Positions 34,296-37,548 of a stretch of 64,000 nt of DNA are shown piece by piece (position 1 is the first letter of the stretch; each line of letters begins with the position of its first letter). The notes below the pieces were generated by a model. That model worked only from the letters and a program-made list of their open reading frames with translations, was not told the origin of the DNA and did not search any database. This DNA is from Comamonas sp. (GTDB lineage Bacteria; Pseudomonadota; Gammaproteobacteria; Burkholderiales; Burkholderiaceae_C): contig JAITLR010000022.1 of NCBI GenBank assembly GCA_031277805.1, positions 124,001 through 188,000 of the forward strand, written 5' to 3'. Made by a program: the position numbers and the translations under genes.

Positions 34296-35027
34296 TCAGG
34301 CCGGGCCGACTGCCGAGGGGGAGAAGTGCGCGTCGAGCTCGTAAAGGTCGGCGGGGAAGGTCAGCCGCACAAAGGTGATGGGCAAACGCCCGGTCCAGGT
34401 ACGCCGGTCAATGACCAGGCAGGGAAAGCCTGGCGCCACCTTGAGCAGACCTACCGTCTCTTCGCTGGCTGCTTCGGCGCGAATGCGGTGCTCGGCCGAA
34501 CTCCAGGGAACATGGTTGACCATCCATGAGCTGGGACTTTGTTCCGTGAACATCTCCTGCTCCGCGTCGGGTACGGCTTCGAGGTTGATCAGGCGATCCT
34601 CGATACAGAACGGGCGCGCTCCCGCCATATGCAGACACAAGGCATGCACGACGGAGCTTGTCTTGGACATGCGCATGGCGTCCATGTCTTCGTGCGTGCT
34701 GCGCCGCTGGAGGCGGCTGAGCAGCTGGCTGGAATATTCCTGCCCCATGCCCAGCACTACCTGGCGCAGATCGGGAATCTCCAGCACGGCGGAGCTGGTG
34801 TGAGGTCGCGTGACAAAGCTGCCAGCCTTGCGCTTGCGCTCCAGCAAGCCGGCCTGGGCCAACTGTGTCAGCACCTTGTTGACCGTCATGCGTGAGCAGC
34901 CGTAATGCACGGTCAGCTCCATCTCCGAGGGGATGCGAAAACCCGGTGGCCAGCGGCCGCTGAGAATGTTTTGCTCGATCTCGGTGAGGATTTTTCCGTG
35001 CAACGACATGGAGGAGTGTTTGTCCAT
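34296..35027 (-). CDS. GntR/HutC-family regulator (HutC paralogue 1)
   Basis: 'VHYGCSRMTVNKVLTQLAQAGLLERKRKAGSFV' and UTRA-type C-terminal domain. Confidence 0.9.
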   Translation of the reverse strand: MDKHSSMSLHGKILTEIEQNILSGRWPPGFRIPSEMELTVHYGCSRMTVNKVLTQLAQAGLLERKRKAGSFVTRPHTSSAVLEIPDLRQVVLGMGQEYSSQLLSRLQRRSTHEDMDAMRMSKTSSVVHALCLHMAGARPFCIEDRLINLEAVPDAEQEMFTEQSPSSWMVNHVPWSSAEHRIRAEAASEETVGLLKVAPGFPCLVIDRRTWTGRLPITFVRLTFPADLYELDAHFSPSAVGPA

Positions 35028-35082
35028 GTGGCAATTACACCAGCAAACACCCCGATATCGGCAGCGCAGCAGAAATATGCGC

Positions 35083-36234
35083 TTACGCGCCCAGAAGAAC
35101 CGAGCGCGCGATGATGGTGCGCTGGATCTCCGAAGAGCCCTCGTAGATGCGCAGAATGCGCGCGTCGCGCACATAGCGCTCCAGCGGCATTTCGCGCGTG
35201 TAGCCGTAGCCGCCGTGGATCTGCAGTGCTTCGTCGGTCACGAAACCCACCATTTCCGAAGCATAGAGCTTGGCCATGGCCGATTGCTGGGTGAAAGGCT
35301 GGCCGGCCTGGCGCAGGGCCAGTGCCTGCATGGTCAGGCCCCAGGCCGCTTCGAGGCGCAGCTTCATCTCGGCCAGCTTGAACTGAATGGCCTGCTTGGT
35401 GGCGATGGGCTCGCCGCCGACCAGGCGCTGATTGGCCCAATCGACTGCCGCCTTGAGCGCGGCCTCGGCAATGCCCAGCGAGGTCGCGGCCACATCGAGG
35501 CGGCTGTTGTCCAGCACCTTCATGGCGATCTTGAAGCCCGTGCCTTCGGCCCCCAGTCGGTTGGCCGCGGGCACGCGCACGCCGTCCAGCGACACCTCGA
35601 AGGCATGGCCACCGCGTATGCCCATGAGCTTCTCGGGCGAAGACACCTGGATGCCAGCCAGATCGCGCGGCACGATGAAGGCGCTGACGCCACGCGCTCC
35701 GGCCTCCATGTCGGTCTTGGCAAAGACCACCATGAAGGTGGCCTCGGCCGCGTTGGAGATGAAGTGCTTGACACCCGTGATCACGTATTCGTTGCCCTCA
35801 CGCATGGCCCGGGTGCGCATGTCAGCGGGGTGGGAGCCGCCGCGCGGCTCGGTTAGCGCGAACGCGGCCAGCCACTCGCCGCTGGCGCAGCGCGGCAGCC
35901 ATTGCGCCTGCTGTTCGGCACTGCCGCCGAGGTGGACCGCATCCGTGCCCAGGTAATGGGCGCCGATCATGGACGAAGTCGCTGCGCAGGCGCGCGAGAT
36001 GGCCACCAGCGACATCAGCATGGCTGTGGGCGTCACGCCCGGGCCGCCTACGGACTCGGGCAGGTTCATGCCCATCACGCCCAGCGCCGCCAGGCCCGGA
36101 ACATGGCGGGTGGCGGAAAATGCCTCCTCGTCCATGGCATGGGCCACAGGGGCCAGGGTTTCTTCGGCAAAACGCGCCACGGCGTCGGCAATGGCCTGGT
36201 CGTCCTCGGTGCTTCCCAGTCTCAGAAAATTCAT
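35083..36234 (-). CDS. Acyl-CoA dehydrogenase
   Basis: 'FALTEPRGGSHPADMRTRA', 'QIHGGYGYTREMPLERYVRDARILRIYEGSSEIQR' with catalytic Glu region. Confidence 0.95.
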   Translation of the reverse strand: MNFLRLGSTEDDQAIADAVARFAEETLAPVAHAMDEEAFSATRHVPGLAALGVMGMNLPESVGGPGVTPTAMLMSLVAISRACAATSSMIGAHYLGTDAVHLGGSAEQQAQWLPRCASGEWLAAFALTEPRGGSHPADMRTRAMREGNEYVITGVKHFISNAAEATFMVVFAKTDMEAGARGVSAFIVPRDLAGIQVSSPEKLMGIRGGHAFEVSLDGVRVPAANRLGAEGTGFKIAMKVLDNSRLDVAATSLGIAEAALKAAVDWANQRLVGGEPIATKQAIQFKLAEMKLRLEAAWGLTMQALALRQAGQPFTQQSAMAKLYASEMVGFVTDEALQIHGGYGYTREMPLERYVRDARILRIYEGSSEIQRTIIARSVLLGA

Positions 36235-36279
36235 ATCGTTCGCTCGCAAGGTGAAAAGAGTGATTTCGTCAGCAATCCG

Positions 36280-37548
36280 TCAATGCGCGGGGCCCAGGGC
36301 GCCGGCTTCGCGCAGCGCGGCTATGGCTTCGCTGCTGCGGTTCAGCCAGCTCGACAGCAGCAGCTCGGTGTGTTCGCCAAGGGCGGGGGCACGCTGGACG
36401 CGATTGGTGGCCGCGCCGTTGAAGTGCACAGGCTGGGTGGGCAGGCGCAGGCCGGGCAGGCGCTCGTCATCGACCTCGCGCAGCAGGCTGCGGGCCTTGA
36501 TCTGCTCGGACTCAAGTGCCTGCGCTATGTTCCAGATCGGCGCCACGGGCACTCCCGCGGCCTCCAGCCTGGCCACCACTTCGGCCACCTCGCGCTGCAT
36601 GGTCCAGCCTTCGAGCGCGGTGCGCAGCGCAGGCTCGTTAGCCGAGCGGCTTTCGTCCGTGGCAAAGCGCGGGTCGTCGGCCAGCTGCGGCAAGTCCATG
36701 GCCTGCACCGTGGCGTCGAACAGCTTCTTATTGAGCACGGCCAGCGCAAAGTGGCCGTCGCGCGCCTGGTAGACGCCAAACGGTGCCGACAGCGGATGGC
36801 GGTTGCCCACGCGCCGCGCGGGCTGGCCGGTGAACAGATAGCGCGACATGGAGGTGGCCAGAAACGTCAGCGTGGTGTCGAACATGGACACGTCCACATG
36901 CTGGCCCTCTCCCGTGCGCTGGGCCTGCAGCAGCGCGGCCAGCGTGGCCCAGGAGGCGAACAGGCCGGCCACCACATCGCTGACGGCCTCGCCCACCAGC
37001 GTGGGTGCGCCCTGGGGCTCGCCCGTGGCTTCCATCAGCCCGCTCATGGCCTGCACGATGATGTCGTAGGCCGGTCGGTGGGCCAGCGGGCCGGTCTGGC
37101 CGAAGCCCGAGACGCTCACATAGACCAAGCGGGGATTGAGGGCGCGCAGCGCCTCGGGCCCGATGCCCAGGCGCTCGGCCACGCCGGGGCGGAAGTTCTC
37201 GACCACCACATCCACTTGCTGCGCCAGTTCATGCACCAAGGCCACGGCCTGCGCATGCTTGAGGTCCAGGACCAGGCTTTGCTTGTTGCGATTCATCACT
37301 GTGAACAGCGCGCTCTGGCCGTTCCTCATGGGGCCTATGGCGCGGTAGTCGTCGCCCTGGGGCGGCTCCACCTTGACCACTTCGGCGCCCAGGTCGGCCA
37401 GCAAGGCCGTGGACATGGGGCCGGCCAGCACGCGTGTGAAGTCCAGGATGCGGATGCCGTCCAGCGGGAGCGGCTTGGATAGGGTTTGTGCAGCGGTCAT
37501 GTGGCTTGCGTGGTTCGGCTGAAAAGATGGGCCATGCTGCGCCGACAT
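36280..37548 (-). CDS. Family III CoA-transferase (CaiB/BaiF); start may be 37500
   Basis: 'ILDFTRVLAGPMSTALLADLGAEVVKVEPPQGDDYR', 'HRPAYDIIVQAMSGLM' catalytic Asp region. Confidence 0.95.
   Translation of the reverse strand: MSAQHGPSFQPNHASHMTAAQTLSKPLPLDGIRILDFTRVLAGPMSTALLADLGAEVVKVEPPQGDDYRAIGPMRNGQSALFTVMNRNKQSLVLDLKHAQAVALVHELAQQVDVVVENFRPGVAERLGIGPEALRALNPRLVYVSVSGFGQTGPLAHRPAYDIIVQAMSGLMEATGEPQGAPTLVGEAVSDVVAGLFASWATLAALLQAQRTGEGQHVDVSMFDTTLTFLATSMSRYLFTGQPARRVGNRHPLSAPFGVYQARDGHFALAVLNKKLFDATVQAMDLPQLADDPRFATDESRSANEPALRTALEGWTMQREVAEVVARLEAAGVPVAPIWNIAQALESEQIKARSLLREVDDERLPGLRLPTQPVHFNGAATNRVQRAPALGEHTELLLSSWLNRSSEAIAALREAGALGPAH

What the first reader, a model, noticed from the sequence alone, without database searches (positions are those of the whole stretch)
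34296..37548. HutC-linked acyl-CoA dehydrogenase + family III CoA-transferase: candidate imidazolylpropionate-to-urocanate module
Seen: a minus-strand run CoA-transferase (36280-37548), acyl-CoA dehydrogenase (35083-36234), HutC-like regulator (34296-35027), next to a LysR-ABC-hutC-hutH block. Knowledge: CaiB-type enzymes exchange CoA between saturated and unsaturated acids, and acyl-CoA dehydrogenases make the 2,3-double bond. Urocanate is the 2,3-dehydro form of imidazolylpropionate. Inference: imidazolylpropionate is activated with urocanoyl-CoA as CoA donor, dehydrogenated, and released as urocanate for HutU. I recall (unverified here) older biochemistry on Pseudomonas, now Comamonas, testosteroni reporting growth on imidazolylpropionate. 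I know of no assigned genes for this route.
Basis: partly seen in the sequence, partly recalled or inferred. Interest (0 to 1): 0.85.

Follow-up and report, generated by a model that had tools for sequence, protein, structure and literature searches.

The report
Hut-linked gene cassette for imidazole-propionate breakdown
Next to the histidine-breakdown genes of this Comamonas-type bacterium sits a small gene cassette that most likely turns imidazole propionate, a gut metabolite linked to diabetes, back into urocanate so that it can be eaten, a step reported in 1973 for which I found no assigned genes.

Summary
A family III CoA-transferase, an acyl-CoA dehydrogenase (ACD) and a HutC-family repressor form a short-gapped minus-strand run beside a complete hut cluster. 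The unit that travels is LysR-CaiB-ACD. Orthologues lie beside hut genes in Comamonas, Delftia, Xylophilus, Polaromonas, Alicycliphilus and Rhodoferax, in several gene orders. One relative lacks exactly LysR-CaiB-ACD at the same site. In the genus, 20 of 54 genomes carry the ACD and all 20 have urocanase; none of the 24 genomes without urocanase carries it.

In Paraburkholderia and one Cupriavidus the pair is far from hut but is followed by an NCS1 permease, sometimes with ETF genes between. That permease groups with hut-regulated permeases, and relatives sit inside Klebsiella hut operons. Catalytic residues are intact.

Best explanation: imidazole propionate is activated by CoA transfer, dehydrogenated through ETF to urocanoyl-CoA, and released as urocanate for HutU. 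One correction: no HutC operator precedes caiB, so the cassette is probably LysR-controlled. Substrate, direction and CoA donor are not shown biochemically. Coote and Hassall (1973) on imidazolylpropionate degradation by P. testosteroni could be confirmed only as a citation.

The parts
36280..37548 (-). caiB-like family III CoA-transferase, proposed urocanoyl-CoA:imidazolylpropionate CoA-transferase (likely true start 37500)
   Evidence: PF02515 441.6 bits; PAYD aspartate aligned with YfdE and conserved in 32 orthologues
35083..36234 (-). acyl-CoA dehydrogenase, proposed imidazolylpropionyl-CoA dehydrogenase
   Evidence: Pfam ACD domains; catalytic Glu in IYEG motif conserved in 32 orthologues
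34296..35027 (-). third HutC-family repressor (accessory, only in some Comamonas)
   Evidence: TIGR02018 281.6 bits over cut-off 220; 26-30% identical to the other two HutC; absent after acd in Delftia and other genera
37556..38488 (+). LysR-type regulator, divergent from caiB, part of the cassette (likely start near 37595)
   Evidence: HTH_1 and LysR_substrate; always divergent to caiB in orthologous loci
37501..37594 (.). LysR-caiB intergenic region with conserved GAATCA/TGATTC half-sites and no HutC operator
   Evidence: alignment of 16 loci; operator scan
38641..38652 (.). HutC operator upstream of the SsuA-type importer
   Evidence: CTGTATATACAT type; core TGTA-N2-TACA as described for HutC in PMC12977541
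38721..41384 (+). SsuA/TauC/TauB-type ABC importer, position and operator fit the predicted HisXYZ of Comamonadaceae
   Evidence: PMC5343134
41387..42181 (+). hutC (first)
   Evidence: TIGR02018 303.5 bits
42246..43805 (+). hutH, histidine ammonia-lyase
   Evidence: TIGR01225 666 bits over cut-off 539
43946..44689 (-). hutC (second)
   Evidence: TIGR02018 294.6 bits
44818..46284 (+). NCS1 permease of the hut/urocanate subfamily
   Evidence: PF02133; tree
46316..48049 (+). hutU, urocanate hydratase, proposed consumer of the urocanate made
   Evidence: TIGR01228 950 bits
48099..48755 (+). hutD
   Evidence: PF05962
48884..50137 (+). hutI, imidazolonepropionase
   Evidence: TIGR01224 471 bits
52226..54178 (+). 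hutF, formimidoylglutamate deiminase (true start well inside this ORF, near 52766)
   Evidence: NF006684 687 bits, residues 181-648
54289..55104 (+). hutG, N-formylglutamate deformylase
   Evidence: TIGR02017 366 bits

Best explanation
LysR-caiB-acd is a peripheral cassette that feeds imidazole propionate (dihydrourocanate) into histidine catabolism. The family III CoA-transferase moves CoA onto imidazole propionate, most economically from urocanoyl-CoA, so that CoA is recycled and free urocanate is released. The acyl-CoA dehydrogenase forms the 2,3-double bond and passes electrons through ETF and ETF:quinone oxidoreductase to the respiratory chain. Free urocanate goes to HutU and also relieves HutC repression of the hut genes. 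The cassette itself is probably switched by its divergent LysR. Shown here: gene content, intact catalytic residues, hut linkage, co-occurrence, presence or absence as a unit, permease kinship, ETF linkage in Paraburkholderia, absence of a HutC operator. Inferred: substrate, direction, CoA donor, LysR inducer.
For: Adjacency to hut in six genera with rearranged orders, including one co-directional run caiB-acd-SsuA-TauC-TauB-hutC-hutH in Alicycliphilus. In the genus 20/20 ACD-bearing genomes have hutU and 0/24 hutU-less genomes have the ACD. One relative lacks exactly LysR-CaiB-ACD between SsuA and recQ (L150). In Paraburkholderia/C. basilensis the pair is followed by an NCS1 permease that is sister to HutC-operator-bearing permeases, clade 100/99; relatives lie in a Klebsiella hutU-permease-hutI-hutG operon. 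ETF genes between acd and permease in P. tagetis. Catalytic Glu and Asp conserved. ETF:quinone oxidoreductase present. Urocanate/imidazole propionate couple estimated near 0 mV (PMC10882135). The cassette is in C. testosteroni ATCC 11996 (L043), the species named in Coote and Hassall 1973 (citation).
Against: No biochemical or growth data. Most Cupriavidus copies have neither hut genes nor the related permease beside them. No HutC operator at caiB. The co-occurrence statistic ignores relatedness. The text of the 1973 paper could not be read, so its cofactor findings are unknown to me.
Confidence: 0.77

Rival explanations
1. The pair acts on an unrelated short or branched acid (general acyl-CoA chemistry), and its place beside hut is inherited coincidence.
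For: No named equivalog is met, so substrate is open. Most Cupriavidus copies are not near hut or a related permease. Adjacency within one family is partly inherited.
Against: Adjacency persists through rearrangement; complete co-occurrence with hutU in the genus; unlinked Burkholderiaceae copies carry a hut-subfamily permease.
Confidence: 0.11
2. The pair handles another saturated imidazole acid, such as a ring-methylated imidazole propionate or a related side product, and gives the matching unsaturated acid.
For: The context points to an imidazole acid but not to one molecule.
Against: The free product must enter hut, and HutU here is an ordinary urocanase (950 bits, far above the thiourocanate models relative to their cut-offs), so urocanate is the simplest product.
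Confidence: 0.07
3. The pair runs in reverse as a urocanoyl-CoA reductase that makes imidazole propionate as an electron sink.
For: The best NCBIfam score is to clostridial acryloyl-CoA reductase AcrC (369.8 bits, below the 640 cut-off), so reduction is known in the superfamily.
Against: The genome has ETF:quinone oxidoreductase, the hosts are mostly respiring Burkholderiales (general knowledge), the pair always comes with urocanase as outlet, and in Paraburkholderia it comes with a permease related to hut uptake systems.
Confidence: 0.05

Closest known systems
Carnitine/crotonobetaine system (CaiB CoA-transferase with CaiA dehydrogenase, ETF-linked FixAB)
   Same: Same pairing of a family III CoA-transferase with an acyl-CoA dehydrogenase and ETF, exchanging CoA between saturated and unsaturated acids (family knowledge)
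   Different: Well below the L-carnitine CoA-transferase (149 of 413 bits) and crotonobetainyl-CoA dehydrogenase (177 of 540 bits) cut-offs; hut context
YfdE (CoA:oxalate CoA-transferase), formyl-CoA transferases and SUGCT
   Same: Closest solved CoA-transferases by sequence (4hl6, 10uh, 9br6)
   Different: Below their equivalog cut-offs (340 of 522 and 320 of 750 bits); partner gene is a dehydrogenase
Acryloyl-CoA reductase AcrC and short-chain acyl-CoA dehydrogenases
   Same: Closest named ACD family (369.8 bits) and closest solved folds
   Different: Below the AcrC cut-off of 640; clade-specific residues such as Asp247 are absent from 15 outgroup ACDs
Urocanate reductase UrdA
   Same: Connects the same two compounds, urocanate and imidazole propionate
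   Different: UrdA is a fumarate-reductase-type flavoprotein that reduces free urocanate (PMC10882135); the present genes are an ACD and a CoA-transferase and are proposed to work in the oxidative direction
HutC regulon with HisXYZ and COG1457 permeases (Leyn et al. 2016, PMC5343134)
   Same: Same hut cluster, operator type and transporter families
   Different: The pair is not behind a HutC operator and is not mentioned in the passages read

Membership tests
Family III CoA-transferases | CoA_transf_3 domain over the full length | tested here: met
   PF02515 positions 1-366 of 366, 441.6 bits
Family III CoA-transferases | Catalytic aspartate | tested here: met
   PAYD aspartate aligned with YfdE and conserved in 32 orthologues; that it is the catalytic one is family knowledge
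Acyl-CoA dehydrogenases | N, middle and C domains and catalytic Glu (MCAD Glu376 type) | tested here: met
   PF02771, PF02770, PF00441; IYEG glutamate in all 32 orthologues
Named ACD equivalogs (AcrC, 3-sulfinopropanoyl-CoA desulfinase, glutaryl-CoA dehydrogenase) | NCBIfam score above curated cut-off | tested here: not met
   369.8 of 640, 231.9 of 600, 224.6 of 470 bits
HutC repressors | TIGR02018 above cut-off | tested here: met
   281.6, 303.5 and 294.6 bits for the three copies, cut-off 220
HutC regulon membership of caiB-acd | HutC operator (TGTA-N2-TACA type) in the promoter | tested here: not met
   No good match upstream of caiB or LysR in 15 Comamonadaceae loci; present before SsuA in every locus scanned and before hutH in nearly all
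Imidazole-propionate degradation pathway | Genomic co-occurrence with urocanase | tested here: met
   20/20 against 0/24 in the genus; 12/12 further pair genomes have full or partial hutU matches
Imidazole-propionate degradation pathway | Enzymes act on imidazole propionate and its CoA ester; growth on imidazole propionate needs them | not testable with these tools
   needs assays and deletion strains
Hut/urocanate NCS1 permease subfamily (pair-linked permease of Paraburkholderia) | Groups with hut-linked permeases apart from other NCS1 proteins | tested here: met
   clade 100/99, sister to HutC-operator-bearing permeases; Klebsiella relatives inside a hut operon
UrdA-type urocanate reductases | Fumarate-reductase-type FAD domain | tested here: not met
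   Pfam finds only ACD domains in 35083-36234

The most novel reading that the evidence does not exclude
These are the first identifiable genes for aerobic imidazole-propionate degradation: a CoA-dependent route using a dedicated urocanoyl-CoA:imidazolylpropionate CoA-transferase and an imidazolylpropionyl-CoA dehydrogenase, with an NCS1 imidazole-propionate permease in Burkholderiaceae.
Probability: 0.66. Interest if true: 0.78.

Novelty: new variant of a known kind. Interest (0 to 1): 0.72.

Why it matters
Imidazole propionate is a microbial metabolite associated with type 2 diabetes. Its maker, UrdA, is known, but in the open-licence papers searched I found no genes for its breakdown. If right, a phenotype reported in 1973 gets its genes, the cassette becomes a genomic marker for bacteria that remove imidazole propionate, and two enzymes become candidate tools for measuring or degrading it. 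It also offers an annotation for proteins now called 'acyl-CoA dehydrogenase family protein' or, in some UniRef entries, '3-sulfinopropanoyl-CoA desulfinase'.

Tried and rejected
HutC operators in front of caiB: not found, so the regulatory part of the HutC link was dropped. Coote and Hassall 1973 (PMC1177604) is not held; only its citation could be confirmed. Ten paper searches found no gene assignment for imidazole-propionate degradation. The fumarate-reductase-like protein at 24029-25828 was considered as a UrdA-like alternative but scores far below every equivalog cut-off and lies about 8 kb away. The ACD has no close match in the plasmid collection. A class-wide search for close relatives of the window's NCS1 permease found only the own genome at E 1e-110. 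The idea that some relatives have the hut permease and urocanase without histidase, which would have pinned the permease to urocanate, failed: they carry another hutH downstream. Pocket residues were not modelled; clade-specific positions such as Asp247, just after the conserved Arg245, are suggestive only.

Full report
WHAT IS THERE. The window comes from a Comamonas-type genome (31 contigs); the closest named relatives of its dehydrogenase are in Comamonas. On the minus strand, 36280-37548 encodes a family III CoA-transferase, 35083-36234 an acyl-CoA dehydrogenase (ACD), and 34296-35027 a HutC-family repressor, with gaps of 45 and 55 bp. Divergent to them is a LysR regulator. Beyond it lie an SsuA/TauC/TauB importer, hutC, hutH, hutC2, an NCS1 permease, hutU, hutD, hutI, a GlcD-like FAD enzyme, hutF and hutG. 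HutH, HutU, HutI, HutF and HutG pass their curated cut-offs. Aligned start codons suggest that caiB begins at 37500 and LysR near 37595.

THE UNIT. Scanning one genome per species gave a sharply bounded ACD orthologue group: 63-97% identity in Comamonadaceae and in Cupriavidus/Paraburkholderia, then a drop to 47%. Members with enough flank have the CoA-transferase directly upstream and LysR divergent. The third hutC follows acd only in some Comamonas (L012, L014, L015, L016, L033, L043) and was not found there in Delftia and the other genera, so it is an accessory. In relative G848 (L150) the block hutU-hutH-hutC-TauBC-SsuA is directly followed by recQ: LysR-CaiB-ACD is missing as one piece. 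LysR-CaiB-ACD therefore behaves as a cassette.

LINK TO HUT. In Comamonas, Delftia, Xylophilus and Polaromonas jejuensis the cassette lies next to the SsuA-TauBC-hutC-hutH block. In Alicycliphilus (L021) caiB-acd-SsuA-TauC-TauB-hutC-hutH run in one direction; G004 (L136) has the same order with an insertion. In Rhodoferax (L024) the cassette sits beside another hutC and hutU/hutH. In Polaromonas P2-4 (L022) it lies within some 10 kb of importer and hutU remnants. Adjacency has therefore survived rearrangement. Among 54 genomes of the genus, 20 have the ACD and 30 have urocanase; all 20 have urocanase, and none of the 24 urocanase-less genomes has the ACD (Fisher p about 1e-7, not corrected for kinship). 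Where both lie on one contig (17 genomes) they are 7.8-13.1 kb apart. All 12 pair genomes reached through loci have full or partial urocanase matches, against 76 of 151 sampled family genomes.

INDEPENDENT EVIDENCE FROM UNLINKED COPIES. In Paraburkholderia and Cupriavidus basilensis the cassette is not near hut, but caiB-acd is followed by an NCS1 permease. In P. tagetis (L038) ETF beta and alpha genes, confirmed by Pfam, lie between. This permease is 48-51% identical to the hut-cluster permease of the window, while most other NCS1 proteins of the same genomes stay at or below 40%. In a maximum-likelihood tree the pair-linked permeases are sister to permeases that have a HutC operator upstream in Paraburkholderia (L097/L141, L098/L140), and together with the Comamonas hut permease they form a 100/99 clade. 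Among plasmid-collection records, relatives (57%) lie in a Klebsiella operon hutU-permease-hutI-hutG and, in other records, next to hutD. K. pneumoniae hutT is described as the urocanate transporter (PMC12188710). The simplest reading is that the pair's substrate resembles urocanate.

MECHANISM. Both enzymes keep their catalytic residues in all 32 orthologues examined. No acyl-CoA ligase or thioesterase was noticed in the operons inspected, so CoA is best cycled between substrate and product, as CaiB-type transferases do (family knowledge). Within the hut pathway urocanate is the 2,3-unsaturated acid that HutU consumes, and its saturated form is imidazole propionate. The couple is estimated near 0 mV (PMC10882135), within reach of ETF and quinones; the genome has ETF:quinone oxidoreductase. 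Urocanate made this way would also lift HutC repression. Imidazolepropionate is described as a nonmetabolizable hut inducer in Aerobacter aerogenes (title of Schlesinger and Magasanik 1965, cited in PMC12772324), which fits the accessory nature of the step. Substrate, direction, CoA donor and LysR inducer are inferred.

REGULATION. HutC operators (CTGTATATACAG type) stand before SsuA and hutH in nearly all loci; no good match stands before caiB or LysR. The LysR-caiB intergenic region is conserved, with GAATCA/TGATTC half-sites. The cassette is therefore probably under LysR control. This corrects the emphasis of the finding's title.

KNOWN AND NOT KNOWN. Leyn et al. 2016 (PMC5343134) describe the HutC regulon, a predicted HisXYZ importer in Comamonadaceae and COG1457 permeases of unassigned specificity; the passages read do not mention this pair. 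Coote and Hassall 1973 is cited in two held papers, but its text is not held. Ten paper searches over open-licence papers gave no assigned genes for imidazole-propionate breakdown; subscription papers were not covered, so a published assignment cannot be excluded. Database names of close homologues are generic or, in UniRef, '3-sulfinopropanoyl-CoA desulfinase', whose NCBIfam cut-off is not met.

WEAK POINTS. Most Cupriavidus copies have neither hut genes nor the related permease beside them. The genus statistics are not phylogenetically corrected. No structure-based substrate test was made.

VERDICT. The enzymes are ordinary members of known families; the pathway assignment is the new part.

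Noticed in passing
50164-51558 (+): A GlcD-like FAD-linked 2-hydroxyacid oxidase/dehydrogenase sits between hutI and hutF and is kept there in other Comamonas and Delftia genomes (L148, L149). It could be the enzyme that oxidises imidazolyl-lactate, the third compound named in the 1973 paper's title.
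   Followed up: partly
34296-35027, 41387-42181, 43946-44689: Three HutC-family repressors in one hut region, only 26-30% identical between the third and the others. Why three are needed is unexplained.
   Followed up: partly
L156 (Klebsiella pneumoniae plasmid Kp46-unnamed1): A plasmid-borne operon hutU-NCS1 permease-hutI-hutG with no hutH among the annotated genes shown, beside an ABC importer, looks like a urocanate-use operon (the gene table of this collection is incomplete).
   Followed up: no
L154 (Paraburkholderia fungorum plasmid): LysR, NCS1 permease of the same subfamily (57%), AMP-binding acyl-CoA ligase and DsbA-family protein in a row next to a Tn3 transposase; perhaps another route for a related acid.
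   Followed up: no
24029-25828 (+): A fumarate-reductase/AprA-like flavoprotein followed by an SsuA-type binding protein (26169-27173); well below all named equivalog cut-offs.
   Followed up: no
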